Of a stretch of 20,172 nt of DNA, positions 2 to 20,010 are shown one piece after another. Origin of the DNA: Candidatus Hydrogenedentes bacterium CG07_land_8_20_14_0_80_42_17 (lineage in GTDB: Bacteria; UBA8481); the NCBI GenBank assembly GCA_002780065.1, contig PEWQ01000013.1, positions 1 to 20,172 on the forward strand. The letters are read 5' to 3'. Position numbers and translations under genes: made by a program. The notes beneath the pieces are model-generated. The model was not told where the DNA came from, ran no database searches, and saw nothing but the letters and a program-made list of their open reading frames with translations. Position 1 is the first letter of the stretch; the number at the start of each line of letters is the position of its first letter.

Positions 2-3000
2 CTGACGATTGACGGAACTCCAACCGCACTTATCGGCATCATAGCGGCTGATACGACTCAATACAGTGGAAGCACAATTTATCTGGATAAGATAAAATTG
101 AGGCTCGATGATCCTACTTCGCCCGGAGGATTTCCTTCGGCAATTTTGAACCCGCTCGTCTTAAACGATTCTTCGAGCGGAATAACGGTATGGAAAGATG
201 CAAATGGAGACAGACAGTTTTCTCAAACTAACGATGTTCCGTTGCGACTTGACAAATATCAGTGGCAGACTGCAAACATTATTGAGTTGGATATCTACAA
301 TGATTCCGCGCCTGTGCCGGATACAGATCCGTATAATCTTCGTTCCGAGACTGCAAGCGTCTTTTTTGTCGTGTTCCGAGCCTCATCGCTGGGGCTGGAT
401 CATCAGGTCAAGATTACAATTGAGGGGGAGAACGAACCGGCCGATCCATGGGTAAAGTTTACCGCTCCAACGGATCCTAGTATAACTCTGTCGCCAAACG
501 TTGTGACTATTGCTCCGCCCGGAGTATCCGGCAATTTCTGGCCGCTTGTATTTTCTCCGAACGGCGACAACGTGACCGAGACGATAACAGTTCAACTCTC
601 GATAATACCGGGTAATACTGATTCGACGTGGTCATTGAATGCGACAAGTGTCTCTTCAGGTAATTCTGCTCTGATTGGTTCCGGAAAGTTCGACAGCACC
701 GTATATGTCGGAAAGACCGCTTCAACGGGCAATCCGCCGACATTTGCGTGGCCGAGCGGATTTACCGGAGGTGGGGCATTTCAACTTTCGTTCACTTACG
801 ACCGCGCAGGAACTTCAAAATCTTATGACTTCGGGGATACCTTGCTCGTCGATCTTTATTGCACCGCTCCGATTTTGATCTCTACATTACCGTCCGTTTT
901 GACCGGAGGAAGTACTGTTGCAGTCTCGATTGCGGCGGATTCTGATCGAAGCAATGTTGACGCGTATGCGCTTACTGAAGGTGAATCCGCGGCAATGTAT
1001 TACATTTACCGATTGGATGGATTAACTGCGGCTTTATTGACTTCGGATAGCATGATTGATTACGAAGCAAATAACATATCTGTGCCTCTTCAGCCCGGCA
1101 ACAACACGCTCGCCGCAGTATTGCGCGATACTTACGGAAACTGGTCGGAGACAACGATATTGGGCTCCGTAAATCTTTCAGTAGGTTCGAACGAAATAAT
1201 GGTTCAGGACTTGCTGACAGATATTTCGAAGCATTGGATAAGCATCGCGGACACTCTGCCGGTATTTGGAATAAATGTGACTCAAGCTGATCCGAACGAA
1301 GCAATAACTGCGATAACTTTGAGATTCTACGATTCAGGCGCATTTGCGTTCGGAAACAATATTGCGGACGTTCCTGTGACAGGGACATATCCTGAGACTT
1401 CCGGAATACTTATCTTCAAGGACAATCCTACTGACGGCATCAAGGGCACGTTCGATACGTATGACATATTGGTTCCGCTTCATCCTGCTCAAAGAAATAT
1501 GAGTTTTTCGAGCGGAGACACAGTTCGATTAATTCCGCAGTCGCCGCTATCTGTCCCTGAAGACGACACAACGGCTTCAAATCAGGGCTTTGATTATTAT
1601 GTCGTTCTTGTCGGCGGCGGTGGCGCTTATTACAAAGACAGTTTTTCGATTGCTATGCCGGCGAATTCTGCGTTCGAGTTTGCAACGACTTCGGGTGTAA
1701 GGTCGAATCTCGCATCTGATGTGACTACGGCTCCAATCTACAGCCGTATTCCAAGAAGCTGGATTGATATGACTGTGACCTACGATTCATTTGCAGTCGG
1801 CTCGAATTACGCGCCGCTATTCGGATTAAACATTTACGACACAACGAGAGTTGGTGACGGCGGAGCATCTCTCGTGACGATTCAGTTGAATTTCGATATT
1901 GCGGCCGGAGACACATTCAACCCTGTGATTCTTTCGTATCAAGTTTTTGCTGATTCAGGAACTTCGGACTCAGGCACATTCTCAGCAACGAACGATTCAG
2001 CAGTCACAACTGCTGTCACGATACTCTCTTCGACTTCGGTGAAGCTGACTTTTGCCGGAGCAAACGCCGGAATTCCATCGACGAATTCCGGAGTCGATTC
2101 AGGTCCTGATTTTTGGATTGCAATTCGGCCGTCAGTCATTGCAGTTTCGATTGACAACAAATTTACTCCATGGATTTCAGAAGGCGGAGCAGTGACCGAC
2201 GGAGATTCTCCGGGCGGACCTGGAATTCGAGCATCAAAGAAAGTGACGATACCTCAGGGTGGAATAACGACTCAGTTCAGTCCGAATCCGTTCCGACCCA
2301 CGACTGCAAAATATTCGAATGCATATTCGTATTACGAAACTACAGGCTATACAATAAACTTCTCTGACACTCGTGGATTCACGGTTTATCTCTACAGAGT
2401 CTCGACCGGCGATACATTTGCAATAAGAACAGGATATGCGAAAGACACAGTAGTTGTCTTTGCATTGAGCGATACGACAGGTTGGAAGATGGACGAATAC
2501 AGATTGACTCTTGTCGATACCTTGACGAATGTACCGACAACTGATGCGAACCTGCTTTACGCTGACTCGCAGGCGTTGACTCCAACACTTCCATCGACTC
2601 CTGCTACTTCTACGACGAGTTCGTCGTTGTCTGTGACGATTCGAGTGAGCGAGGTGACGGAGAATTCGGTTCAACGCGCAAGGTCTAAGGCAGAACGCGA
2701 TTCCTTCATGCTTGTATTCCACGTCAGCTGTTCTTGCGGAGGCGACACGACGGATACTGCGTATGGAGCTTTAACTTCTTCGAGCGTCGATGTCACGAAG
2801 ACTATTACACTCGGTTCGGGATTGAATACAGTTAATGTCATTCTAGTCGATAAGCTAGGCAATTATGATTCGACATTAACATTCACTGTGACGAGCGGCT
2901 CGGCGATTACAGGCAATATTGGTTTCGAGAACAATTCACCGCTATTCAAATATTCTCCATCAAATACGGAATTTACTTTTACATTCCCGACAACAGTTGC

Positions 3001-3208
3001 AAGCGGCGCGACGATGGAGTTTTACAATATAAGCGGCGACCGCATGAGATTGCTAAAAATACCTGAGAACTCACCGTTAGTAACTTGGGACGCGAAAAAT
3101 GAAAACGGGCAGTTGCTAAGAAACGGTGTTTATTTGATTAAGTTCAAGGTTCCTCTTTCGAATGGTCAAACTATCGAAGAGACCAGAACTATATTTTTGC
3201 TGAAGTAA
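2..3208 (+). CDS. Large secreted surface protein with Ig/FlgD-like domains (5' truncated)
   Basis: The reading frame is open from base 2 with no stop, so the true start lies upstream; 1068 residues are visible and a TTG at 98 is not needed as a start. The protein is rich in Ser, Thr, Gly and Asp with beta-sandwich-like composition and no membrane helix. A PLVFSPNGD segment near visible residue 184 and a FSPNPFRP segment near 759 are the entry motifs of FlgD/CHU_C-like Ig domains. The last ~95 residues (about 973-1068) match the FlgD-like C-terminal domain pattern: a structural-coordinate strand, FYNISGDRM, TWDAKNENGQ and LRNGVYLIKF. In FCB bacteria such domains often act as type-IX-secretion sorting tails, so I infer export to the cell surface. 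A SCSCGG cluster lies near base 2725. The next gene begins within 9 bases, suggesting an operon. Enzymatic activity, if any, is not visible; it may be structural or adhesive. Confidence 0.8.
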   Translation: MTIDGTPTALIGIIAADTTQYSGSTIYLDKIKLRLDDPTSPGGFPSAILNPLVLNDSSSGITVWKDANGDRQFSQTNDVPLRLDKYQWQTANIIELDIYNDSAPVPDTDPYNLRSETASVFFVVFRASSLGLDHQVKITIEGENEPADPWVKFTAPTDPSITLSPNVVTIAPPGVSGNFWPLVFSPNGDNVTETITVQLSIIPGNTDSTWSLNATSVSSGNSALIGSGKFDSTVYVGKTASTGNPPTFAWPSGFTGGGAFQLSFTYDRAGTSKSYDFGDTLLVDLYCTAPILISTLPSVLTGGSTVAVSIAADSDRSNVDAYALTEGESAAMYYIYRLDGLTAALLTSDSMIDYEANNISVPLQPGNNTLAAVLRDTYGNWSETTILGSVNLSVGSNEIMVQDLLTDISKHWISIADTLPVFGINVTQADPNEAITAITLRFYDSGAFAFGNNIADVPVTGTYPETSGILIFKDNPTDGIKGTFDTYDILVPLHPAQRNMSFSSGDTVRLIPQSPLSVPEDDTTASNQGFDYYVVLVGGGGAYYKDSFSIAMPANSAFEFATTSGVRSNLASDVTTAPIYSRIPRSWIDMTVTYDSFAVGSNYAPLFGLNIYDTTRVGDGGASLVTIQLNFDIAAGDTFNPVILSYQVFADSGTSDSGTFSATNDSAVTTAVTILSSTSVKLTFAGANAGIPSTNSGVDSGPDFWIAIRPSVIAVSIDNKFTPWISEGGAVTDGDSPGGPGIRASKKVTIPQGGITTQFSPNPFRPTTAKYSNAYSYYETTGYTINFSDTRGFTVYLYRVSTGDTFAIRTGYAKDTVVVFALSDTTGWKMDEYRLTLVDTLTNVPTTDANLLYADSQALTPTLPSTPATSTTSSSLSVTIRVSEVTENSVQRARSKAERDSFMLVFHVSCSCGGDTTDTAYGALTSSSVDVTKTITLGSGLNTVNVILVDKLGNYDSTLTFTVTSGSAITGNIGFENNSPLFKYSPSNTEFTFTFPTTVASGATMEFYNISGDRMRLLKIPENSPLVTWDAKNENGQLLRNGVYLIKFKVPLSNGQTIEETRTIFLLK

Positions 3209-3216
3209 AGTTGAAA

Positions 3217-4698
3217 ATGCATAATTATTTTACAAACGAAAGATTGTTTAATCAAAAAATACTTATTGTCGTAACAGCGTTCATTTTGCTGCTTTCAGGG
3301 AATTCAAATGCGGGAAATGTTTCAGGTTCATTTGCTGAAACGGGAATTGGAGCGCGAACTCTGGGGCTAGGCAACGCTTACGTCGGCATAGCCGATGACG
3401 TATATTCATTGACCGCAAATCCTGCAGGGCTCGCTTTGATGAAACATATCTCCGGAACTTTCGACTATGCAAATCTTTACGGGTTGGGATTGCTGAAGCA
3501 ATCATTTTTTGGACTTGCAGTGCCGACTCAGTGGGGAACTCATGGATTTTATTATCAAGGATTGAATGTTGAGTTCTCGCCGTTTCCTCAGAAATTATCA
3601 GAGTCGACGCTTGGCTATGCGTATGCAAAAGCGTTCGGACCATTGGCAATCGGAACTGCGATTAAGTATATGGACTTGAGTTCAGATTTTGCTGAGGGAA
3701 CCGCGACAGGATTCGGAATTGATTTAGGAATAAGGTATCAGTTGACCGAACGGATTTCGCTTGGCGGAATGATTCGCGACTTATACGCGACAACGAGCTG
3801 GGGCACCGGCACAAGAGAGACTATTCCTGCTTCGTGGCGGTTTGGCGCGGGATATAGAATTTCGGATAGATGGCTTGCGTCAGCCGAGTGGGGCGGAGTG
3901 AGCGGAGATTATTTTTCGAGATTCAGAGCCGGAACAGAGTATTGGATAATGCGGCCGAGCTATCTTGCTCAGACATTGGGAGGAGGCTCGGAAAAAGCAA
4001 ATTCGATATTCAAGCCGTCGCGTGAGACATATTATCCGATAGCTTTGGCAGTGCGTACCGGATTTGAAAAACAGTTTACCGGCGACAAACATATATTTCC
4101 CGCAATAGGAACGACACTTGGATTCGGCTCAGTGCGGTTGGACTACGCTTATATTTATGCGAGACAAGGCCTAGGAGAAACGAATCGATTCAGTTTGACT
4201 TATGATTTTACTCCGTGGGAAGTTGAGCAAAAAACCGAAGAGCGCGAGAAGCCGAGTGAAGAAAAACCTGCGGAGACTCAGAGACCCGCAACTATTTCGA
4301 CTTTGGAAAATGGGATAGCAGTTCTTGACTTTGCGAATGCAACAGGAAATCCGGAATTAGGTTGGCTGGAACTTGGGCTAGCCGACATTGTATCAAAGGA
4401 GGTTGCTAATGTCGGACTTCCGGTTATCTCGAGATCTGCGACCTCAGGAACAGCCGGATTGACAGGCCCGGAGATATTAACTTTGGCTCAACAAGTTCGG
4501 GCGAGATATGTTGTTCGAGGATTATTTGTAAAAAATTCCAGGGGAAATATGGTTTTGACCGCCCGCTTTATCGATGCTCAAACCGGAAGAACTTTGGATT
4601 TCATCGAGTCTGAAGCTGGAGAATCAGAGATATTTGTTTTAGGCAAGGCCATAGGCCAGGGGGTTGCCGCGAAGGCAGGAGCATGGTTTGGCCGGTGA
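3217..4698 (+). CDS. PorV/PorQ-like outer-membrane barrel fused to a TolB_N/FlgO-like domain
   Basis: The ATG at 3217 is preferred; a TTG at 3211 is in frame. The N-terminus has a signal peptide (charged start, hydrophobic ILIVVTAFILLLSG, small residues NSNA). The mature start carries the PorV/PorQ/UPF0164 signature GARTLGLGNAYVGIADD followed by NPAGLA, then repeated amphipathic strands typical of a FadL-like barrel to about residue 335. A charged Glu/Lys/Pro linker (EKPSEEKPAETQ) follows, then a ~120-residue C-terminal domain beginning IAVLDFANATGN with LGLADIVSKEVA, YVVRGLF and TARFIDAQTGRTL. This is the pattern of the TolB N-terminal/FlgO/CsgG-like fold. PorV-type barrels shuttle type-IX cargo; the extra domain would sit in the periplasm. 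A paralogue with the same architecture lies at 6119. No Shine-Dalgarno is evident, so coupling to the upstream gene is likely. The barrel assignment is firm, the cargo-shuttle role inferred. Confidence 0.78.
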   Translation: MHNYFTNERLFNQKILIVVTAFILLLSGNSNAGNVSGSFAETGIGARTLGLGNAYVGIADDVYSLTANPAGLALMKHISGTFDYANLYGLGLLKQSFFGLAVPTQWGTHGFYYQGLNVEFSPFPQKLSESTLGYAYAKAFGPLAIGTAIKYMDLSSDFAEGTATGFGIDLGIRYQLTERISLGGMIRDLYATTSWGTGTRETIPASWRFGAGYRISDRWLASAEWGGVSGDYFSRFRAGTEYWIMRPSYLAQTLGGGSEKANSIFKPSRETYYPIALAVRTGFEKQFTGDKHIFPAIGTTLGFGSVRLDYAYIYARQGLGETNRFSLTYDFTPWEVEQKTEEREKPSEEKPAETQRPATISTLENGIAVLDFANATGNPELGWLELGLADIVSKEVANVGLPVISRSATSGTAGLTGPEILTLAQQVRARYVVRGLFVKNSRGNMVLTARFIDAQTGRTLDFIESEAGESEIFVLGKAIGQGVAAKAGAWFGR

Positions 4699-6122
4699 AA
4701 TTATTAAATTACATGAAGCCTCAAATGCGGCGATTGCTCATCCTTTGCTTGTTTGCAGGCATTGCAATGGTAAATCCGGCGAAAGTATTTGCGGATCAAA
4801 TAGAAGTTTATTTTTCACCGGGCGAGGATCATACGGGCGGAGCAACTTCGACGATGAAAGAAGCTCTGATAAATTTTCTGAAGTCAGCAACGAAGTCGAT
4901 CGATATAGCAGTTTACAATTTTCAGGACAAAGAGATCATCGAGACTTTGAATACGATTTCAGCGGCAGGTCAGGTCACGATTCGGGTGATTGTGGACGAC
5001 TTGAATTATCCGGTCAGGACTTCGGACGGAACGCTGTCGCTTTCTTCTTCAATAGAGTCGAAAAAAGATGACAAACCTGAATACGAGATGCATAACAAAT
5101 TTGCGATTGTGGATCGCGGAGAATCCGGCGCCGCGGTATGGACTGGCTCGCCGAATTTCAACAGGCCGAATATGACTACGATGAACAACAACGCGGTGCT
5201 TATTCGGAATTCGGATGTGGCGGCGGCGTTCGGGGAAGAGTTCGATGTGATGTGGAGCGGAAAGTTTCATCACAACAAAACGACTCCATCTACAAAAACG
5301 ACTTTTACAGTTGGAGGAATTCCGGTTGAGGTTAGATTTTCTCCTAAAGATTTGCCGTTAGATAAATTGATAAGCTCGGTAAGTTCTCTGACAACTTCGC
5401 TCTATTATGCGATATACACGTATCAGAGCCCTGATTTGGAGAATGCAATGATTTCCAAGAAGAGCACAGTTGGCTCATCTAACCTTGGAGATTTTGATGA
5501 ATTCATGACAGCGTTTACGGTGAGCTACGATCATCTCAATTCTGCAGGAATGAATGTAATGAAGGATTTAAATGCAGATGTATTGCACCACAAGTTTGCG
5601 GTTTTGGATGGATACACTGTATTCACGGGCTCGATGAATTTCACTGTTTCAGGGAATGACGATAACGACGAGAACTCGGTGATAATTCAGGATGCGGCGG
5701 TGGCTAAGGCGTATCTTGCCGAGCTTGCCAGAATTTCTAATCATTCAATTGGAACGATCACAGCGGCTGATTGGAAAGATTCGATTGTTGTAGGTTCGGG
5801 AACGACAACTCCGGTTTCTACTTCTTTAATCGAACCTGAGATTGGCAAGACCAAAGCGATTTCTTATCCAAATCCTTTTATAGCGGCTAATGGCGGCACG
5901 TTGACATTGCGCACTGATCCGGAAGCTACATTGACTTCCGTCAGAATTTATACGATAGACGGCAGGCTGATTTATACCATGACGCCTACGACTTCTACTT
6001 CGCAGATTACATGGGATGGAAGAAATATTCGCGGAGAATTTCTTGCAAGCGGATCTTACATACTTGAGATGGAGACAAAATCTTCTGGAATATCCAGAGG
6101 CATAATTACGTTGATAAAATGA
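4695..6122 (+). CDS. Secreted phospholipase D-family protein (two HKD motifs) with C-terminal sorting domain
   Basis: Two HxKxxxxD motifs are present, HNKFAIVD (cat codon at 5091) and HHKFAVLD (5586), each followed by the usual TGSPNF or TGSMNF, so both halves of a PLD active site appear intact. A signal peptide precedes them (MRRLLILCLFAG, then NPAKVFA). The last ~85 residues start with ISYPNPF and contain VRIYTIDGRLIY, TWDGRN and LASGSYILEM, a FlgD-like type-IX-style sorting tail. PLD-family members act on phosphodiesters in lipids or nucleic acids; this length and layout resemble secreted PLD-type nucleases, but the substrate is not readable. The start is uncertain: GTG 4695 makes a GTGA overlap with the upstream stop, as elsewhere in this window; ATG 4683 and ATG 4713 are in frame, and AGGAG lies at 4677-4681. 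It sits between two PorV-like barrels, which suggests it is their exported cargo. Confidence 0.85.
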   Translation: MKLLNYMKPQMRRLLILCLFAGIAMVNPAKVFADQIEVYFSPGEDHTGGATSTMKEALINFLKSATKSIDIAVYNFQDKEIIETLNTISAAGQVTIRVIVDDLNYPVRTSDGTLSLSSSIESKKDDKPEYEMHNKFAIVDRGESGAAVWTGSPNFNRPNMTTMNNNAVLIRNSDVAAAFGEEFDVMWSGKFHHNKTTPSTKTTFTVGGIPVEVRFSPKDLPLDKLISSVSSLTTSLYYAIYTYQSPDLENAMISKKSTVGSSNLGDFDEFMTAFTVSYDHLNSAGMNVMKDLNADVLHHKFAVLDGYTVFTGSMNFTVSGNDDNDENSVIIQDAAVAKAYLAELARISNHSIGTITAADWKDSIVVGSGTTTPVSTSLIEPEIGKTKAISYPNPFIAANGGTLTLRTDPEATLTSVRIYTIDGRLIYTMTPTTSTSQITWDGRNIRGEFLASGSYILEMETKSSGISRGIITLIK

Positions 6123-7423
6123 ATACTAAATTCAGGGTATTAACAATATCAGTGCTGCTTCTGCTTTTGGTTTCTTATGCCGGCGCAGGCAGTGTTGGAA
6201 CTTCAGGCGCCACTTTTTTGAGAATTCATCCGATGGCGCGTTCAGTAGGAATGGGCAATGCTTACACAGGACTTGCTACGGGAATTGAAGCGCTTACATA
6301 CAATCCTGCCGGAATTACTACGGTAGATAAATGGGATATTGGTTTGTCTCAAATTGTTTACGCCATGGATATCGGATATTCTTATGCGGCTGTTGCTCGG
6401 CGTTTGAGCGACAAAACAGTTATTGCTCTGCATATGACTTATCTCGGAACTGATGATGTTCAGCGCGATGGAAACGGAGCTGTCATTGGGAATTTTTCGA
6501 GTTACGATTTTGCTCCGGCTTTTACGATCGGCTATCAGATTGCTCCGGAGGTTGCGGCCGGCGGAACGATAAGATACATTCGAAGCGAGATTTTTAATTA
6601 CAATGCAAATGCAATTGGACTCGATATAGGGTTGACTTATAGACCAATAAATTGGCCCGGAGTTTCAATCGGAGCTGCAATACAAAATATTGGAACCGGA
6701 ATCGAATTCATCTCTACTAGCTCGCCTCAGCCTCTAACGGCTCGAATAGGAATTGCTTATTCTCCTCCGAGAAGCAATTATACGTTGGCAGGAGACCTTT
6801 CAATGGATAGAGAAGACCAGCCGCGGGCGAATTTCGGAGCTGAATATCGAGTGCTGAACTATCTTGCATTGAGAGGCGGTTTTGACGTCGGATACGATGC
6901 GTCTTTCGAACGCGCATTGAAGCTTGGTGTCGGTTTCTTCTCGAAGGTAGGTTCTTTTGATTACGCGTATGAGTCCATGGGACCCTCGGGAACGAATCAC
7001 AGGTTCAGTTACAGTTATCTCGGAGGACAGCCGCATCTTTATGACCGCACCGACACAAGAGGATTTTTTGCAGGCGGCATCAGCTTGACAAAAGAAAGAG
7101 TTCTTACCGCAATTGTTCCTTTCACGAATCTTTCTCCTTCATCAGAATACGATTGGATGTCTGAAGGCTTGAAAGAAATTTTTATCGACCGCATAAAACG
7201 AAATTCGGATATTGTGCTCTCTCCGTATCAAGATGCGAATATTATTATTGAAGGAAAATATAGCGCGCTTGCCGGTAAAGAGATTTGGGTTGGAGTGAGA
7301 ATCGTATCGGTTCGCAATAATACGGTTATAGGATTCAAAGAAGCTACGATATCAGAAGACCGCTTGATTGACGGAGCTACTACGTTGGCTGGAGCTGTAA
7401 TCTCTGCAATTCCGGGCAGATAA
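6119..7423 (+). CDS. Second PorV/PorQ-like barrel with TolB_N-like C-terminal domain
   Basis: The start ATG overlaps the previous stop as ATGA. A signal peptide (VLTISVLLLLLVSYAGA) precedes SGATFLRIHPMARSVGMGNAYTG and YNPAGIT, the PorV/PorQ signature. Beta-strand repeats typical of an outer-membrane barrel run to about residue 310. The C-terminal ~110 residues start AIVPFTNLSPSSEYDWMSEG and contain IIIEGKYSALAG and VGVRIVSV, corresponding to the same TolB_N/FlgO-like fold as in the gene at 3217, but more divergent and without the charged linker. The two proteins share architecture rather than close sequence, so they are old paralogues. I infer that both serve the outer-membrane delivery of the proteins encoded beside them. 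A plain structural barrel or transporter remains possible. Confidence 0.78.
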   Translation: MNTKFRVLTISVLLLLLVSYAGAGSVGTSGATFLRIHPMARSVGMGNAYTGLATGIEALTYNPAGITTVDKWDIGLSQIVYAMDIGYSYAAVARRLSDKTVIALHMTYLGTDDVQRDGNGAVIGNFSSYDFAPAFTIGYQIAPEVAAGGTIRYIRSEIFNYNANAIGLDIGLTYRPINWPGVSIGAAIQNIGTGIEFISTSSPQPLTARIGIAYSPPRSNYTLAGDLSMDREDQPRANFGAEYRVLNYLALRGGFDVGYDASFERALKLGVGFFSKVGSFDYAYESMGPSGTNHRFSYSYLGGQPHLYDRTDTRGFFAGGISLTKERVLTAIVPFTNLSPSSEYDWMSEGLKEIFIDRIKRNSDIVLSPYQDANIIIEGKYSALAGKEIWVGVRIVSVRNNTVIGFKEATISEDRLIDGATTLAGAVISAIPGR

Positions 7424-7426
7424 ATC

Positions 7427-7609
7427 ATGAACAATGTTTTGGATAAATCGAAACGGATAGAAGAAAAACCGGTTAATATTTTTTTACCTTTCACATTCAG
7501 AGAAGTTATTGGAATTTTATTATTATCGGCGATCGCGATTTTATGCGGATTAGTTTTCACATCAACTTTAACCGGAGCAGAAAGTAATTTATTTGTGAGG
7601 CTAATGTGA
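7427..7609 (+). CDS. Small single-span membrane protein, function unknown
   Basis: This 60-residue frame starts 4 bases after the upstream stop and ends inside a GTGA overlap with the next gene, so it fits the operon exactly. Residues 1-20 are charged, followed by FLPFTFREV and one strongly hydrophobic helix (about 28-46, IGILLLSAIAILCGLVF). There is no signal-peptidase or lipobox motif. Length, single C-terminal helix and a Pro-x-x-x-x-Glu-Val segment before it faintly recall SecE, but the conserved Lys-Val-x-Trp-Pro core is absent, so I do not assign it. Function unknown. Confidence 0.55.
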   Translation: MNNVLDKSKRIEEKPVNIFLPFTFREVIGILLLSAIAILCGLVFTSTLTGAESNLFVRLM

Positions 7610-7782
7610 AGATTGAGGCATACTGCGTGAAGTGTAAGACTTTGCGGGAAATTGCCGAACCCAATCTCGTAACTATGAAGAATGGCAGATGCGCCGCAAA
7701 AGGGAAATGCGTCGAATGCGGGACAACTCTATACAAGATACTTTCCGAGGAGTGCAGAGAACAGCTTGAAAAAAAGGAATGA
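7606..7782 (+). CDS. DUF5679-like zinc-ribbon protein (58 aa)
   Basis: A short gene starting with GTG in a GTGA overlap with the upstream stop. Translation begins MKIEAYCVKCKTLREI and contains VTMKNGR, then KGKCVECGTTLYKI. The two CxxC pairs (Cys7/Cys10 and Cys35/Cys38) should bind one zinc ion. The arrangement, including the T-M-K-N-G-R segment between the pairs, is that of the small DUF5679 family, whose function is not established. An in-frame stop just upstream makes GTG 7606 the only nearby start. Its end overlaps the likely start of the RNA methyltransferase by 17 bases, which argues against the longer methyltransferase start at 7682. Confidence 0.78.
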   Translation: MKIEAYCVKCKTLREIAEPNLVTMKNGRCAAKGKCVECGTTLYKILSEECREQLEKKE

Positions 7783-8488
7783 CGGCAATTTTACTATTGA
7801 AGGATTTCGAGCTGTCAGAAGCGTTCTGAAGTCTAATTTAAAAATTGTGACTTTGATTTTAATTGAGAGTGCAGACGGAACGATACAGGATAAATTTTTA
7901 ACTTTGGAGCAAGATGCCCGAAACAGAGGAATAGAGGTCAGGCATATTTCAGAGCGGCATTCCAAAAATTATTTTGATTCGAAAAATCCTCAAGGAATCT
8001 GCGCGGTTATCGAACAACCGAAAGATATGTCGCTTGAAGATTTTTTTAAAACCTCAAAAAGAATACTTATTTTAGACGGATTGAATGATCCTGGCAATGT
8101 AGGGACTCTTGTAAGAACAGCTTCATTGTTGGCATGGGACGGCATTATTATTCTGCCGAACACAGTTTCGCCGTATCAACCTAAGGCGGCGCGAGCGTCT
8201 GCAGGCGCGATAGGTTTTATTAAAGTGATGAGAGCGAGTGCAAAAGAAATTCAGCGAGCGGTGCACAAGAACGGCTTTACAACTTTGAGAGCTTCTATAA
8301 GCAAGAGAAGCAAAGAATTCGAGATGACGGAAGATTCGAAGATTGCTCTTATTTTAGGAGGCGAGGCGCGCGGAACAGAGGCCGATTGGAAAGACAGCGT
8401 TGATGTCAATATCTCGATGAAGAATCTACCTATTGATTCTCTGGGAGTAGTTGCAAGTGGATCAATTTTGTTGGAACGATATAAATAA
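7766..8488 (+). CDS. SpoU/TrmH-family RNA 2'-O-methyltransferase
   Basis: The protein transfers methyl from S-adenosylmethionine to a ribose 2'-hydroxyl in rRNA or tRNA. All three SpoU motifs are visible: LNDPGNVGTLVRTA (motif 1), ALILGGEARG (motif 2) and SLGVVASGSILLERY (motif 3), which build the trefoil-knot cofactor site. The N-terminal IEGFRAVRSVL is the substrate-binding domain start seen in RlmB-like members. I choose TTG 7766 (241 residues, starting LKKRNDGNFTIEG) because an ATG at 7682 would run through the zinc-ribbon gene in another frame and its first 28 residues look like a frame shadow. GAGGAG at 7747-7752 is somewhat distant. Exact target nucleotide is unknown. It is the last gene of the plus-strand run and converges on rpiB. 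Confidence 0.88.
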   Translation: MKKRNDGNFTIEGFRAVRSVLKSNLKIVTLILIESADGTIQDKFLTLEQDARNRGIEVRHISERHSKNYFDSKNPQGICAVIEQPKDMSLEDFFKTSKRILILDGLNDPGNVGTLVRTASLLAWDGIIILPNTVSPYQPKAARASAGAIGFIKVMRASAKEIQRAVHKNGFTTLRASISKRSKEFEMTEDSKIALILGGEARGTEADWKDSVDVNISMKNLPIDSLGVVASGSILLERYK

Positions 8489-13883: not shown

Positions 13884-14300
13884 ATGGCTCTGGATTTAAG
13901 TAATTTGCAAAAAGCAATTAATTCACTCGAAATTGCAATTAAAATTGCTTCTCTTAAAATTAAAGGCAATAACGACCCTGAGGAAAAAGTCATTATGGCT
14001 GGCGTCATACAGACTTTCGAGTTCACTTACGAATTATGCTGGAAGTTTATGAAAAGATGGCTCGAAGTTAATGGAGAAGGAGCGACCATTGATGGTGCAA
14101 CAAGAAAAGAGATTTTTCGTATTGCATTAGAAAAACAGTTAATAAAAGATGTAGAATTATGGTTTGAATATACACTAGCAAGAAATGAAACGTCACATAC
14201 TTATGATTCTGATACTGCACAAGAGGTTTATCAGAAAGCTATAAAATTTCTTGATGATGCAAAATTGTTATTATTAAAAATCGAAAGTAAGAATGATTAA
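13884..14300 (+). CDS. hepT: HepT-like HEPN ribonuclease toxin (HI0074 family)
   Basis: The 138-residue helical protein belongs to the nucleotidyltransferase-substrate-binding/HEPN family. It shows FEFTYELCWKFMKRWLE in the middle and the catalytic Rx4HxY motif Arg100-NETS-His105-T-Tyr107. In characterised pairs HepT is an RNase whose motif tyrosine is AMPylated by MntA, blocking activity. All catalytic residues and the target tyrosine are present, so it is probably functional. The next gene, mntA, overlaps it by 8 bases. The pair is much more AT-rich than its neighbours and follows a block of palindromic repeats, which suggests acquisition by transfer. The start is ATG after GTAAAGAA; no clear promoter is seen in the repeat block. 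Confidence 0.9.
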   Translation: MALDLSNLQKAINSLEIAIKIASLKIKGNNDPEEKVIMAGVIQTFEFTYELCWKFMKRWLEVNGEGATIDGATRKEIFRIALEKQLIKDVELWFEYTLARNETSHTYDSDTAQEVYQKAIKFLDDAKLLLLKIESKND

Positions 14301-14583
14301 TCTTTCTGAAAAGTATTATTCGATAATTAAAGATATTTTTCAAAGATATTTACCAGATGTTGAAGTAAGAGTTTATGGTTCTCGTATAAACGGAAAATCC
14401 AAAGCATATTCAGATCTGGACCTGGTTATCGTTGGAAAAACAAAAACAGAATCAAAACTATTAATAAAACTAAAAGAAGAGTTTGAAGAATCTGATATTC
14501 CTTTTCGCATTGATATTATCGATTGGCATAGAACATCTAAAGAGTTCAGGCAAATCATTAATAAACAATATGAAGTTATATAA
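14293..14583 (+). CDS. mntA: MntA-like minimal nucleotidyltransferase antitoxin
   Basis: This 96-residue protein is a minimal nucleotidyltransferase: YGSRINGKSKAYSDLDL gives Gly29-Ser30, then ten residues, then Asp41-x-Asp43, with a third acidic residue in FRIDIIDW (Asp74 or Asp77). This is the GSx10DxD active site used to transfer AMP from ATP to the tyrosine of HepT. Order (toxin first, 8-base overlap) and size match HepT-MntA type VII toxin-antitoxin modules. Two 60-base samples in the gene have about 25 and 33 percent G+C by my count, against 40 to 52 percent in samples from other genes here. Confidence 0.9.
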   Translation: MINLSEKYYSIIKDIFQRYLPDVEVRVYGSRINGKSKAYSDLDLVIVGKTKTESKLLIKLKEEFEESDIPFRIDIIDWHRTSKEFRQIINKQYEVI

Positions 14584-14720: not shown

Positions 14721-15953
14721 ATGTTCAAGCGCAATTTAATCCGATTATTATTTTTCGTTTCTTTGATAATTTTGGCAATTGCATTTCGATTGTGGTTGGC
14801 TCATTCCTATCCGCAAAAAATAGATTCGACCGATGCCGAACAATACATTACTCTCGCTTCAAATATGATTTCAGGTCGAGGCTATTCATTGTGGCATACC
14901 GCTCCTTTTTATCCGGATGTTTATCGCTCGCCCGGGTATCCGCTCTTTTTAGCGCTTCTAATGAAGTTTGGTATAAATCAGTTCGGACGTATTTTAGTTC
15001 AAATAGGTTTAGAACTTTTTTCGATTTGTTTAGGAGCATTTGCTATCTTCAAAGTGTCAAATGAAAGAGCAGGGTGGAGCGCTTTAATATTTGCACTCTT
15101 TTGTCCTTTTACTGCAAGCATTTCGACTCTATTCAATTCAGAAGCTCTTGCGATGCCGATTATCACCTTAATTTTTGCAATTCCATTTTTATTTTCAGGA
15201 TACATTTGTGCTGTTTCGATTGCGCTGTTGACTGGAATTCTAATTCTAACACGAGGCATTTTTCTGCCTGCTTTGCCTTTAGGCGCGCTGATCTTTTTTC
15301 TAGCAAGAAGAAACACATCTTTAGGATGCAGATTAAAAATGCCTGCAATATTTACGGCTGTTGTTCTGATTTCAATTCTACCATATGGATTATGGAATTA
15401 TGAAACTCATGGTAAATTCTCTTTTACCCCTCTTGCGGGGTTCGGAAGGGCACTTTGGGGCGGAGTTGCGATGATGCCCGGATTTAAACTTTCTCCGCCT
15501 GAAGATGCTTGGAAGATTCACGAATCGATTTGGAGAAAAGATCCAACTCATCCTGCTCCACAAAAATTAATTCAAGCGGATCATGAGCTGAAAGAAATAG
15601 CGAAAAAAGAGATATGCAGGCTTCCTTTGAGATATCTTTACGGCGTGGCAAGGCATGCAATTCATATGTGGTTTGGAGTTCGATTTCTTTTTCCGTTCAA
15701 TAATCCAACGCATATATCAACTGTTTTAAGAATTTTGGGCAGTCTTTATTTTCTTCTAGCTGTTTGGATGTGGATAAGACTTCAAATAGATTGGAAGATT
15801 AAATTATTGGGATTCATGCCGGCGATAGTGACTGCTGTGACTCTGCCGTGGCTTTATTTTACCATGCGCTATACTTCAGCAATTTACGGACCATTTTCTA
15901 TTTTAGCAGGTGCGGCTTTTTTTTCAGGAAAGAGCGAAAGGTTTTCTAAATGA
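14721..15953 (+). CDS. GT39/GT83-like membrane glycosyltransferase (ArnT/PMT type)
   Basis: The 410-residue protein has an N-terminal span (LLFFVSLIILAIAFRLWLA) followed by a periplasmic loop with IDSTDAEQYITLASNMISG, where Asp38 and Glu40 lie at the position of the acidic catalytic residues of GT-C lipid-phosphate-sugar transferases. YRSPGYPLFLALL follows, and eight or more further spans. Such enzymes transfer a sugar from a polyprenyl-phosphate carrier to lipids or proteins on the outer face of the inner membrane. It is rather short for ArnT, lacking a large C-terminal periplasmic domain. Its stop overlaps the next start as ATGA, which ties it oddly to a DNA-repair-type gene pair. Family is clear, substrate is not. 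Confidence 0.8.
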   Translation: MFKRNLIRLLFFVSLIILAIAFRLWLAHSYPQKIDSTDAEQYITLASNMISGRGYSLWHTAPFYPDVYRSPGYPLFLALLMKFGINQFGRILVQIGLELFSICLGAFAIFKVSNERAGWSALIFALFCPFTASISTLFNSEALAMPIITLIFAIPFLFSGYICAVSIALLTGILILTRGIFLPALPLGALIFFLARRNTSLGCRLKMPAIFTAVVLISILPYGLWNYETHGKFSFTPLAGFGRALWGGVAMMPGFKLSPPEDAWKIHESIWRKDPTHPAPQKLIQADHELKEIAKKEICRLPLRYLYGVARHAIHMWFGVRFLFPFNNPTHISTVLRILGSLYFLLAVWMWIRLQIDWKIKLLGFMPAIVTAVTLPWLYFTMRYTSAIYGPFSILAGAAFFSGKSERFSK

Positions 15954-17200
15954 AAATTCTTGCAACTGCTGATATTCATATCGGTAGACGTTCGGCTTCT
16001 TTTGAATCGCACTCTTCGCGTTCAGCGTGGGAGCGAATTGTCGAAAAAGCAATTTCGGAAAAGATAGACCTTCTTCTTCTGGCCGGCGATATTGTCGATG
16101 AAGAGAATAAGTTTTTTGAGGCAGTAGGACCGCTTGAACGAGGAGTTTCTAAACTTGCTGAAAATAGAATTCAGACTGTGGCTGTTGCCGGCAATCATGA
16201 TTTCGATGTGTTGAAACGGATTGCAAAGAAATTGCCGTCGGAGTTCAAATTATTTTCAAATGAGTGGTCGTACATAGATTTTCCTTTTGAGTCGCCGCAA
16301 GTTCGAATAATCGGCTGGTCATTTCCGGAAGCGCATTACAAAACAAGTCCGGTATCTGAGTTTAAAAAAGAATTTCTCAAAAATGATTTGCCGACATTCG
16401 GACTTCTTCATGCCGATCTTGACAATTCGTCAAGCATTTATGCTCCGGTGAAATCTTCGGAACTTCTCGATATTCCACTTGACCTCTGGATTCTCGGGCA
16501 TATTCACAAGCCGGGATTTTGTTGTGAATCAGGCGGCACAACAGTTTTGTATTGCGGTTCGCCTCAAGCTCTGGATTCCTCTGAAACCGGCATTCACGGT
16601 TCGTGGATATTAGAATTGAAAAATGGAAAATTGTCGAAACCAAGCCTTATTCCGATTTCGTCTGTAATGTATGACAAATACAGTATTTCAATTTCAGGCG
16701 CGGAAACTGAAGAGGAGCTGCAAACTTCGATTTATGACGGAATAAAAACTTATTGCGACAGGGAACTTTCTGAAACATGTTTGACTGAAATACAGATGAA
16801 TTTGACTATTGAGGGTGAAACATCACATCCGAGTTTAGTTCGTGAAATATCAGAAGAGTTTATGAATTCTGAAAAAGATTATTCAATCAAAAATACTTTT
16901 GGAAATGAGATACAACTGCAAATATCAGATTATTCTCTTTCATTGCGGCCGAAAATTTCAGTGGAAAAACTTTCTAAAGAGAGCGGCGTGCTCGGAGTAA
17001 TGGCGAAATTAATTCAAAAATTAGAAAGAGGAGATGAATCGGAGACAGTTGAAGCTCTTATGAAGAATACTGATGACATAATTCAGCGTTTCGGAGCAGA
17101 AATTCCGATCAAATCGAATGAAGATACAAGAAGACTTTTGATTCGGGCAGGGCGAGAAATTCTTGCTACTGCTGTTGAGTCGATGGAGAAGTCATCGTGA
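15950..17200 (+). CDS. SbcD/Mre11/YhaO-like metallophosphoesterase nuclease
   Basis: All five calcineurin-like phosphoesterase blocks can be found: ADIH (Asp8, His10), GDIVDE (46-51), GNHD (81-84), LLHADLD and GHIH (183-186). These bind two metals, Mn in the Mre11 family, and give exo/endonuclease activity on DNA ends. At 416 residues with a ~170-residue C-terminal region, it matches SbcD/YhaO-type subunits that pair with an ATPase. The partner ATPase follows with a GTGA overlap. Segment VRIIGWSFPEAHY and YCGSPQALDSSETG resemble YhaO-like proteins. Its start forms an ATGA overlap with the glycosyltransferase gene. Likely role: processing of blocked or broken DNA ends as a complex with the next gene product. 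Confidence 0.9.
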   Translation: MKILATADIHIGRRSASFESHSSRSAWERIVEKAISEKIDLLLLAGDIVDEENKFFEAVGPLERGVSKLAENRIQTVAVAGNHDFDVLKRIAKKLPSEFKLFSNEWSYIDFPFESPQVRIIGWSFPEAHYKTSPVSEFKKEFLKNDLPTFGLLHADLDNSSSIYAPVKSSELLDIPLDLWILGHIHKPGFCCESGGTTVLYCGSPQALDSSETGIHGSWILELKNGKLSKPSLIPISSVMYDKYSISISGAETEEELQTSIYDGIKTYCDRELSETCLTEIQMNLTIEGETSHPSLVREISEEFMNSEKDYSIKNTFGNEIQLQISDYSLSLRPKISVEKLSKESGVLGVMAKLIQKLERGDESETVEALMKNTDDIIQRFGAEIPIKSNEDTRRLLIRAGREILATAVESMEKSS

Positions 17201-20010
17201 GAACTGCGGTTTTAAATGAAATCAAGGTTGAGTCGGCGCCTGGAATTCCGCAGTTGTTTTCCATTTCTGATTTTTGCAGAGGAGTAAATGTTATTGTTGG
17301 GAAGAATGCGTCAGGCAAGACAACTACGATTAGAGCCATACAATCAACATTGTGGCCGGACAGAAAAAATGTCTTCCGGGCAACCTCTGTTTGGAAGATT
17401 GACAGCGATGAATGGAGACTAACTGTTCAAGGAAAGAACCGCTTCTGCTATTCAAATGAACAGCAGTGCGAACCCGACTGGATACCTTCAATAGAAAACA
17501 GCCAGATATATTTCATATCTCTTTTGGAATTGCTTTCCGAGAAAGAACGGGGCGAGAAGTTTGCTATAAAAATTCAACGAGAGTTATGCGGAGGTGTGGA
17601 CTTTTCGGAAATATCAGAGAAGTTTAATTTAGACACAAAAAAGCAATATAAGAATGAGAAGAACAATTTAAAATCTGCGAAAGATGAGCTGAAAAAATTA
17701 TGGGCGGATGCAAAGAATAAAGAAAAGCAAGAGAAAGAGCTTTCGAGATTGGAGAAAGAGACGGCTGAGCTTCAGATAAAGATTGATTCTGCGAAAAAGG
17801 TTCAAGCGGTGTTGGAATACATTGAGTCGAAGCAATTACTTGATTCCAAAGATAAACAGCTTCGAGCTTATCCGGAATTTTTGAGACGAATGAATAATGA
17901 AGATGCGGCGCGAATAATTGAATTGAGGAGACGAATCGACGAGCTTGAACGTGAAATTGATTCCGATTCGGAAAGCGAAATGATTTTACGAAAAGAATCG
18001 GAAATTTGCGGTTTAACTCATGAAGAGATAGAAAGAAATTTGGACGATACTCGGCGTCGGATTGCAAACTTGAAGATTTTGCAGAAAGAGTTAGATGAAC
18101 AAAAAAATAAGCTGAGTTCTATCAGAGGCGTCGAAAAAAAAGCTGTAGAAGATTTATCTGAAATGGGCGTAGATTCAGAACGGAGCAGAGACATATCTTA
18201 TTGCGGTAAACTGGAAAATCTGCTGGAAAGAATTGAAGCTTTTCGAACAAGAAAAAATGAAATATCAGCGAGAATAAACGAACTTGAACGGGAATCTACT
18301 TCTACGAGTCAGGAATCTGAAATGGAACGAACAGCAAGAGCAGTTATTATTTTGAGAGAATGGCTACGGAACTCAAAGAATGAAAATCCGTGGTATAAAT
18401 GGGTCCTCATCTTTTATGGATTGACAATAATTGATTATTTTAAAAGATCAGTTGCATTAACAGCAATAATTATTTTTGTTATTGCGGCATTAGTCTTCTG
18501 CGTGCTTGCAGTTGAACATTTATTGAGAATAAGTAGAAAAAAAACCTATTGTCAAATAAAGATGTCTGAATTCTCTGAATTGAAGTTAGAGCCTCTTACT
18601 GATTGGAGTTTTGAAAATGTGGAGTTGCGTTTGTCTGAGCTTGAAATGAAGCTGGATAATATTCGCTGGCAGGAAAAAATTATCGAGAAAAGAAAATCAT
18701 TATCAATTGACTTGGATTCACTTATCGAAGAGGAAATAAAATTAAAAAGTGAAATGCTCAAATTTAAAGATGCCGCCGGAATTAATAGTTCTGTTCCCGA
18801 AATCAATTTATTGTCGATCAGTAGGGCTTTGACAGCCTCACAAAGCTCGAGAATCGATATTGCCGGGATCGAGTCTCTCATGAATAAAATTGCAGTTTCG
18901 ATTGAATCGGAATTGAATTTGATAAACGAAGGTTTCAAATTAATCGGCGGAAGAGAAGTGAGCGATGCGATATCCGGCGAGACGGAATTCGAGTTTCTTT
19001 TTAGAAGATTCAGATCTGCCGGCGAATCATTGAATAAAGCAGAGAAGCTTTTGCAGAAGCTGAATATTTCGAGAAGAGAGCTGGCAGAAAAGAAAAATGA
19101 GCGAGCAGGAATAATTCAGAGGATAGTAGAAAACGTTTCTGGAATCGACGAGAACGCTATCTTACAAGCGGCGGAGAAACTTAAGGAATTTTCGAAAGTT
19201 GCGAAGGAACGGGATGAAGCAAAATTTTCAGCGGATTCAAAACGGGAAAAACCGGATTCACTGGAGCTGAATCGAATAGATAGAATGGAAAAGGATGAAT
19301 TGCAGAAATATGAAAAAGAACTTCAGGAAAGATGCGGATTATTGAAGGAATTGACAGAAGAAAGAGAAAAAAAGTTGGCGCAAATTTCGGGAATACAAGC
19401 ATTGATAGAAGATGCGAAGAACAAGGATACGATAGAATGCGCACTTGAAAAGAGGGATGAAGCTTTACGACAGGTGAGGCGCGCTGCGGATAAAGAGATG
19501 TGGAGAAGTGCGGCAAATATTTTTATTGAAAAAGTTAAACGGGATATTTCAGAAGTTTCATTACCGAGAGTGGCAAGAATGAGTAACGAAATTTTTGAGA
19601 CTGTAACTGCCGGCAGATTCAGTGCGGTTTTTCCAATTGGCATCAGCGAGGAGATTAGAGCGGCAGAAATATCTCAAGACAGAAATATTGAGAAAAAACT
19701 GGATGAACTTTCCAGTGCGACTCGATTACAACTTCTCTTATCAGTTCGAATGGCATTTCTTGAAGAGAGCGGTCAGAGTTATTCTCTGCCTGCTTTTTTT
19801 GACGAGACGCTTGCGAACAGTGATGAAGACAGAATCAAAAAGATTGCTGAATTAGTTGCAGTAATTTCAAAGAGAGGCCATCAGGTTTTTTATTTTACTG
19901 CGAGAGAAGAAGAAGAAAAAATATTGAGCGAAGAATGCATGAAAGTCGGAACTGATTATAGGCGTTTTGAACTTAATTACATCTGTCATCGCGACGAAGC
20001 AATCTCTTAA
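17197..20010 (+). CDS. SbcC/Rad50/YhaN-like coiled-coil AAA ATPase with central membrane segment
   Basis: The ABC-type head is split as in SMC/Rad50 proteins: Walker A GKNASGKTT at residues 35-43, then ~800 residues mostly coiled coil, then the signature-like SSATRLQLLLSVRMAF (about 838-853), Walker B LPAFFDETLANSDED with Asp869-Glu870, and H-loop His895 in KRGHQVFYFTA. Where Rad50/SbcC have a CxxC zinc hook, I see none; instead residues ~400-442 hold hydrophobic spans (WVLIFYGLTII and ALTAIIIFVIAALVFCVLAV). This is the layout of B. subtilis YhaN, which partners YhaO. The complex would be tethered to the inner membrane. The last eight residues (930-937, CHRDEAIS) and the stop are encoded by an inserted palindromic repeat, so the ancestral C-terminus has been altered. 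Confidence 0.88.
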   Translation: MRTAVLNEIKVESAPGIPQLFSISDFCRGVNVIVGKNASGKTTTIRAIQSTLWPDRKNVFRATSVWKIDSDEWRLTVQGKNRFCYSNEQQCEPDWIPSIENSQIYFISLLELLSEKERGEKFAIKIQRELCGGVDFSEISEKFNLDTKKQYKNEKNNLKSAKDELKKLWADAKNKEKQEKELSRLEKETAELQIKIDSAKKVQAVLEYIESKQLLDSKDKQLRAYPEFLRRMNNEDAARIIELRRRIDELEREIDSDSESEMILRKESEICGLTHEEIERNLDDTRRRIANLKILQKELDEQKNKLSSIRGVEKKAVEDLSEMGVDSERSRDISYCGKLENLLERIEAFRTRKNEISARINELERESTSTSQESEMERTARAVIILREWLRNSKNENPWYKWVLIFYGLTIIDYFKRSVALTAIIIFVIAALVFCVLAVEHLLRISRKKTYCQIKMSEFSELKLEPLTDWSFENVELRLSELEMKLDNIRWQEKIIEKRKSLSIDLDSLIEEEIKLKSEMLKFKDAAGINSSVPEINLLSISRALTASQSSRIDIAGIESLMNKIAVSIESELNLINEGFKLIGGREVSDAISGETEFEFLFRRFRSAGESLNKAEKLLQKLNISRRELAEKKNERAGIIQRIVENVSGIDENAILQAAEKLKEFSKVAKERDEAKFSADSKREKPDSLELNRIDRMEKDELQKYEKELQERCGLLKELTEEREKKLAQISGIQALIEDAKNKDTIECALEKRDEALRQVRRAADKEMWRSAANIFIEKVKRDISEVSLPRVARMSNEIFETVTAGRFSAVFPIGISEEIRAAEISQDRNIEKKLDELSSATRLQLLLSVRMAFLEESGQSYSLPAFFDETLANSDEDRIKKIAELVAVISKRGHQVFYFTAREEEEKILSEECMKVGTDYRRFELNYICHRDEAIS

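What the first reader, a model, noticed from the sequence alone, without database searches (positions are those of the whole stretch)
3217..7423. PLD-family cargo sandwiched between two PorV barrels that each carry a TolB_N-like domain
Classical PorV/PorQ proteins are barrels alone. Here both copies end in a ~110-120-residue TolB_N/FlgO-like domain, and between them lies a two-HKD enzyme with signal peptide and YPNPF-type sorting tail; a giant protein with a similar tail lies just upstream. Overlaps suggest one transcript. I infer a dedicated outer-membrane delivery unit in which the extra periplasmic domains could couple the barrel to peptidoglycan, a Tol/Pal-like energiser or the type IX core. 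I know of no described system with this exact layout, but I cannot search.
Basis: partly seen in the sequence, partly recalled or inferred. Interest (0 to 1): 0.65.

Follow-up and report, generated by a model that had tools for sequence, protein, structure and literature searches.

The report
Secretion barrels with TolB-like periplasmic domains
A poorly known bacterium encodes a secreted DNA-cutting-type enzyme and a giant surface protein together with two outer-membrane 'shuttle' barrels that each carry an extra periplasmic domain folded like part of TolB; this looks like a little-described variant of type IX protein secretion in which many cargoes have their own shuttle.

Summary
Two PorV/PorQ-type barrels (3211-4698, 6119-7423) each end in a separate alpha/beta domain, and a secreted two-HKD PLD protein (4683-6122) with a type IX sorting tail lies between them, in a tightly packed four-gene cluster with a giant tail-bearing protein (2-3208). 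AlphaFold models give barrel, disordered linker and a confident C-terminal domain in both; the PorV1 domain matches the TolB N-terminal domain (Z 14.6). The only other genome held of this phylum (Hydrogenedentota J006, another family) keeps all four genes (28-51% identity), but there the PLD gene precedes both barrels, so the 'sandwich' is not conserved. None of the distant PLD loci examined has a PorV barrel beside it. The wider pattern is more interesting: this genome has 14 PorV-family barrels, 10 directly downstream of a tail-bearing cargo gene, and at least 5 carry the TolB_N-like domain; elsewhere such barrels are fused to TolB_N-like, TPR or OmpA domains. A divergent SprA is present; no PorU was found. 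Best reading: cargo-dedicated PorV shuttles, like the PorP/SprF shuttles of type B cargoes, with periplasmic handles fused on. New variant of a known kind.

The parts
2..3208 (+). Giant secreted protein, 5' end outside the window; C-terminal FlgD_ig/type IX-like tail ending ...TRTIFLLK; putative cargo
   Evidence: FlgD_ig 0.0012 below cut-off; homologous to the J006 giant, 28% over 731 aa, E 3e-46
3211..4698 (+). PorV1: signal peptide, FadL/PorV-type barrel (about residues 48-333), disordered linker (336-365), TolB domain-1-like C-terminal domain (366-492)
   Evidence: NF033709 3.3e-17; AF2 pLDDT about 90 in the C-domain; 8gl6_F Z 31.6 and TolB 6pnv Z 14.6 over model 364-492
4306..4695 (+). 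TolB_N/FlgO-like domain of PorV1
   Evidence: 54% identical to J006 against 26% in the linker
4683..6122 (+). Secreted two-HKD PLD-superfamily protein (Nuc/NucT-like) with YPNPF/FlgD_ig/T9SS type A-like tail; putative cargo
   Evidence: PLDc_2 2.3e-34, FlgD_ig 1.4e-8; TIGR04183 over cut-off; endonuclease 1byr 3.9e-11; both HKD motifs intact
6119..7423 (+). PorV2: signal peptide, PorV barrel (about 32-302), linker (303-325), shorter TolB_N-like C-domain (328-429)
   Evidence: NF033709 6.5e-46 over cut-off; AF2; 6h3i_F Z 32.2; C-domain homologous to PorV1's
7097..7408 (+). TolB_N-like domain of PorV2
   Evidence: 42% identical to J006 against 25% in the linker
7682..8488 (+). SpoU-family rRNA/tRNA methyltransferase, conserved downstream neighbour in J006 but probably not part of the unit
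   Evidence: SpoU_methylase 4e-21; similar neighbour in L022

Best explanation
This is one of a series of 'cargo plus dedicated shuttle' loci of a divergent type IX-like secretion system. Step 1 (inferred from the sequence): the giant protein and the PLD enzyme cross the inner membrane with Sec signal peptides. Step 2 (inferred from the type IX system): their C-terminal Ig-like tails dock in the large SprA-like outer-membrane pore encoded elsewhere in the genome, against the outer loops of a PorV-family barrel sitting at its side opening. Step 3 (inferred likewise): the barrel pulls the cargo out sideways and carries it to the surface. The barrel encoded next to the cargo is proposed to be its own shuttle, as shown for PorP/SprF shuttles of type B cargoes in Flavobacterium. 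Step 4 (the new part, inferred): the TolB_N-like domain fused behind the barrel hangs into the periplasm on a flexible linker and serves as a handle or docking module, taking the place of separate periplasmic partners (SkpA, SprE/PorW, PorE) that touch PorV or link the translocon to the motor and peptidoglycan. The PLD enzyme is most likely a surface or secreted nuclease that degrades external DNA. Shown here: domains, predicted folds, conservation, linkage. Not shown: secretion, pairing, force transfer, enzyme activity.
For: PorV-family count 14 in this genome and 16 in J006; 10 of 14 and 11 of 16 lie directly downstream of an ORF ending in the same kind of tail, all ending in R or K. SprA-like protein with a 2117-aa open frame, 6.1e-28, and J006 2.9e-21. 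Barrel folds match PorV of the SprA translocon best or tied best. PorV1's C-domain matches TolB domain 1; a profile of such domains matches a FlgO-domain structure, 5e-6. C-domain conserved as well as the barrel in PorV1 (54 vs 55%) and somewhat less in PorV2 (42 vs 53%), linkers about 25%. Four-gene cluster kept in J006 with overlapping junctions. Barrels elsewhere fused to TPR and OmpA, module types of PorW and PorE (PMC8754138, PMC5053529). Substrate-linked shuttles: PMC12618676. SkpA contacts the periplasmic face of PorV and power input removes PorV-cargo: PMC10994853.
Against: No PorU sortase found and no GldM or GldN, although the C25, GldM and GldN controls did not ring, so their absence is not shown. 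SprA matches are below the curated cut-off, and Pfam's SprA_N is found only weakly, in J006 alone. The giant's tail is below the FlgD_ig cut-off. Two barrels beside two cargoes, in an order that changes, means the one-cargo-one-shuttle pairing is not proved here. Only two genomes of the phylum are held.
Confidence: 0.6

Rival explanations
1. The TolB_N-like domains act as peptidoglycan-synthesis or ring-type modules (LpoB/FlgO/CsgG-like), so the barrels form static oligomeric rings or anchors rather than mobile shuttles.
For: The domain profile matches FlgO-domain structures deposited with many chains and, in single members, Pfam FlgO, CsgG and LpoB; OmpA fusions elsewhere suggest wall anchoring.
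Against: The closest fold match listed is TolB domain 1; barrels are strongly linked to tail-bearing cargoes. The fold alone does not tell function, so this is not excluded.
Confidence: 0.2
2. The barrels are FadL-like small-molecule channels or generic surface proteins, and the linkage to tail proteins reflects shared surface function rather than transport.
For: FadL/TodX structures also match strongly; PorV1 is below the PorV model cut-off.
Against: PorV of the SprA translocon is the best or tied-best structural match and PorV2 passes NF033709; cargo-barrel adjacency repeats in 21 of 30 cases; an SprA-like gene is present.
Confidence: 0.1
3. The PLD protein is a phospholipase or cardiolipin-type lipid enzyme, or a weapon against neighbouring cells, rather than a scavenging nuclease.
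For: MitoPLD matches almost as well as Nuc (6.1e-11 against 3.9e-11); PLD folds serve all these roles.
Against: NCBIfam's best match is NucT and the second HKD domain matches bacterial endonuclease Nuc first.
Confidence: 0.3
4. The PLD gene is a hitchhiker: the real unit is giant protein plus PorV1 and PorV2, and PLD moved in once in the ancestor of this phylum.
For: PLD position differs between the two genomes; giant-PorV1-TolB_N pairs without an adjacent PLD occur in four distant genomes; no PorV within about 1.5 kb of PLD homologues elsewhere.
Against: PLD has its own T9SS-type tail, stays in the cluster in both genomes, and its stop codon overlaps the start of the following barrel gene in both.
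Confidence: 0.35

Closest known systems
T9SS PorV shuttle (Flavobacterium johnsoniae, PDB 6H3I/8GL6)
   Same: FadL-like barrel fold (Z about 32), PorV/PorQ family model, linked to Ig-like CTD cargoes, SprA-like translocon in the genome
   Different: Extra C-terminal TolB_N-like domain; many paralogues each beside a cargo gene; PorU not found
PorP/SprF cognate shuttles of type B CTD cargoes (PMC12618676)
   Same: Shuttle gene directly downstream of its cargo gene
   Different: Those are PorP/SprF barrels with type B CTDs; here PorV-family barrels with FlgD_ig/type A-like tails
TolB N-terminal domain (PF04052; PDB 6PNV)
   Same: Same fold for the PorV1 C-domain, Z 14.6 over 122 residues
   Different: No beta-propeller, no evidence of Pal or TolA binding; attached to an outer-membrane barrel
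FlgO / CsgG / LpoB domain relatives
   Same: Profile match 5e-6 to FlgO-domain structures; individual members hit CsgG at 6e-5
   Different: Here the domain follows an outer-membrane barrel instead of standing alone
PorE and PorW, periplasmic T9SS linkers
   Same: OmpA and TPR modules of these proteins reappear fused to PorV-like barrels in distant genomes
   Different: They are separate OM lipoproteins, not barrel fusions; the TolB-like part of PorE is a propeller, not the TolB_N fold
NucT / Nuc PLD nucleases
   Same: HKD and GSxN motifs, secreted
   Different: Two HKD domains in one chain plus a sorting tail

Membership tests
PorV/PorQ family (NF033709) | PorV2 over the curated cut-off (90 bits) | tested here: met
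   PorV2 157 bits
PorV/PorQ family (NF033709) | PorV1 over the curated cut-off (90 bits) | tested here: not met
   PorV1 62-63 bits; its J006 orthologue passes with 105 bits
PorV/PorQ family (NF033709) | FadL-like barrel matching solved PorV | tested here: met
   6h3i_F/8gl6_F Z 31-32 for both; FadL close behind
PorV/PorQ family (NF033709) | Binds CTD cargo in SprA pore | not testable with these tools
   needs biochemistry
Type IX secretion system | SprA/Sov translocon | tested here: inconclusive
   TIGR04189 6.1e-28 on a 2117-aa frame but below the cut-off; Pfam SprA_N only weak, in J006
Type IX secretion system | PorU C25 sortase | tested here: inconclusive
   only tail matches to NF033707 in this genome; PF01364 none in six genomes, control silent; assembly 87% complete
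Type IX secretion system | GldM/GldN motor and ring | tested here: inconclusive
   no match, control silent
T9SS type A CTD (TIGR04183) | PLD tail over cut-off | tested here: met
   PLD 32.1 bits, cut-off 23
T9SS type A CTD (TIGR04183) | Giant protein's tail over cut-off | tested here: not met
   no TIGR04183 hit listed; FlgD_ig 19.2 bits, cut-off 27
TolB_N domain | Fold of TolB domain 1 | tested here: met
   PorV1 Z 14.6; PorV2 only by homology to PorV1, its own fold match untested
TolB_N domain | Pfam gathering score | tested here: not met
   no TolB_N hit for either window protein alone; among the 15 related domains the best E is 6e-4
TolB protein | C-terminal beta-propeller | tested here: not met
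   the chain ends at the domain
PLD superfamily | Two HKD motifs | tested here: met
   HNKFAIVD at 137, HHKFAVLD at 302; PLDc_2 2.3e-34
NucT equivalog | Curated cut-off | tested here: not met
   49 bits against 297

The most novel reading that the evidence does not exclude
A type IX-like system in little-studied phyla runs with a large set of cargo-specific PorV shuttles whose fused periplasmic handles (TolB_N, TPR, OmpA) replace the PorU/Gld machinery and couple each shuttle directly to a periplasmic energiser or the cell wall.
Probability: 0.2. Interest if true: 0.8.

Novelty: new variant of a known kind. Interest (0 to 1): 0.5.

Why it matters
Type IX secretion has been studied almost only in Bacteroidota. 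A lineage with 14-16 PorV-family barrels, most of them beside a tail-bearing cargo and often fused to periplasmic domains, would suggest that cargo-dedicated shuttling extends to the PorV family, and the natural fusions point to how a shuttle might be gripped from the periplasm.

Tried and rejected
C-terminal regions as barrel strands or linkers: rejected by both AF2 models. Sandwich as a conserved arrangement: rejected by J006. PLD-PorV linkage across phyla: 54 of 386 genomes have PLD relatives (two of them are this genome and J006), and none of the 28 fetched distant loci has a PorV barrel within about 1.5 kb; in G133 a PLD gene (1.3e-34) lies 1.1 kb downstream of the PorV barrel, not seen beside the barrel in its relative G270, so taken as chance. 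Full-length PorV2 relatives with the same C-domain gave no clear match outside the phylum in 386 genomes, partial overlaps only. FlgO/CsgG/LpoB chains are not among the rows listed by the structural comparison, which does not exclude them. Promoter/terminator scans at chance level. No paper found that describes PorV fused to TolB_N, TPR or OmpA, within the open-access library only.

Full report
WHAT WAS CHECKED. The window (G000:C3) comes from a 2.39 Mb, 87% complete assembly.

BARRELS. PorV2 passes the NCBIfam PorV/PorQ model (157 bits, cut-off 90); PorV1 reaches 63 bits, though its J006 orthologue passes with 105 bits. AlphaFold2 on nine-sequence alignments gave mean pLDDT 79.5 and 80.8. Foldseek ranks PorV of the SprA translocon (8gl6_F) first for both, and the second aligner gives Z 31.6 and 32.2 for PorV chains, with FadL-type channels close behind. 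So these are PorV/FadL-fold barrels, with PorV the best or tied-best match.

C-TERMINAL DOMAINS. After the barrel comes a stretch of pLDDT below 50 (PorV1 336-365, PorV2 303-325) and then a separate domain, mostly at pLDDT about 90, of strand-helix-(helix)-three strands-helix order. The PorV1 domain (364-492) aligns to TolB residues 34-160 with Z 14.6, rmsd 2.8, 122 residues. A 15-member profile of such domains matches FlgO-domain structures at 5e-6, and single members hit TolB_N, FlgO, CsgG and LpoB in Pfam, best E 6e-5. PorV1 and PorV2 domains align at 94.6% probability, against at most 2% for column-shuffled controls. Between the two genomes the domains are 54% and 42% identical while linkers are 25-26%, so they appear to be under selection.

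PLD PROTEIN. Two intact HKD motifs, PLDc_2 2.3e-34, a type A-like sorting tail over the TIGR04183 cut-off and a signal-peptide-like start. The closest solved structures are endonuclease Nuc and MitoPLD. A nuclease is favoured, not shown.

IS THE UNIT CONSERVED? In J006 the same four genes lie together with overlapping or near-touching junctions, next to a SpoU methyltransferase, at 28% (giant, partial), 51% (PorV1), 40% (PLD) and 49% (PorV2) identity. The order is giant-PLD-PorV1-PorV2, so the sandwich is not conserved, but the linkage is. Outside the phylum, four genomes of two families have full-length PorV1-TolB_N-like relatives next to giant tail-bearing proteins, without PLD directly beside them (a PLD gene lies 1.1 kb downstream in one, G133). 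PLD relatives in 28 distant loci have no PorV barrel within about 1.5 kb, though several carry their own tails.

THE WIDER PATTERN. This genome has 14 PorV-family barrels and J006 has 16. Directly upstream of 10 and 11 of them is an ORF ending in the same kind of Ig-like tail. The TolB_N-like domain occurs on five barrels here (one has two copies; the end of one further barrel reads N) and seven in J006; one barrel here has TPR-like repeats by eye. In distant genomes such barrels end in TPR (1e-18) or OmpA (5e-25) domains by Pfam and in other extensions by eye. OmpA and TPR are module types of the separate T9SS linkers PorE and PorW (PMC5053529, PMC8754138).

MECHANISM. In Flavobacterium PorV docks at the side opening of SprA, binds the cargo tail, and is pulled away with it by energy input; SkpA touches its periplasmic face (PMC10994853). 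Type B cargoes rely on PorP/SprF shuttles, often encoded directly downstream (PMC12618676). The layout here suggests the same rule for PorV-family barrels. A divergent SprA-like protein exists in both genomes. No PorU was found and no GldM or GldN, but controls were silent, so this is inconclusive. An even-stranded barrel of the FadL fold puts the C-terminus in the periplasm (established knowledge of that fold), so the extra domain is inferred to be a periplasmic handle or dock; what it grips is unknown.

VERDICT. Observation confirmed; the dedicated-unit idea is plausible as part of a repeated cargo-shuttle series, while the sandwich and the PLD partnership are not general. New variant of a known kind, interest 0.5.

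Noticed in passing
L141 6966-8852 (-) (G000:C204) and L072 8098-10107 (-) (J006): A PorV-family barrel with two tandem TolB_N-like domains sits in a type IV pilus/type II secretion-like gene run (PilB/PilT/PilC-like and pseudopilin-like ORFs, named by eye) in both genomes.
   Followed up: partly
L026 2635-3600 and L093 170-1411: A GDP-mannose-dehydratase-like ORF (named by eye) lies directly before the PorV barrel in both genomes; in L026 a tail-bearing protein precedes it.
   Followed up: no
window 7606-7782 and 7427-7609: A 58-aa zinc-ribbon-like ORF overlaps the called start of the SpoU methyltransferase (7682), so that start is probably too early; a 60-aa one-helix ORF precedes it.
   Followed up: partly
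window 13884-14583: HI0074/MntA-like HEPN-MNT pair (substrate-binding and nucleotidyltransferase genes).
   Followed up: no
window 15950-20010: SbcD/Mre11-like phosphoesterase followed by a Rad50/SMC-like ATPase whose start overlaps it.
   Followed up: no
L139 3510-9860 and L140 6455-12754: The SprA-like gene lies next to LptF/LptG-like permease genes (named by eye) in both genomes.
   Followed up: no
L024 2867-6031 (-): A large ORF with an amidase-like start (by eye) and two PLD domains at its end, without a sorting tail.
   Followed up: no
L049, L051, L065: PorV-like barrels with long C-terminal extensions that look like transglutaminase plus TPR by eye; L062 looks like fibronectin type III.
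   Followed up: no
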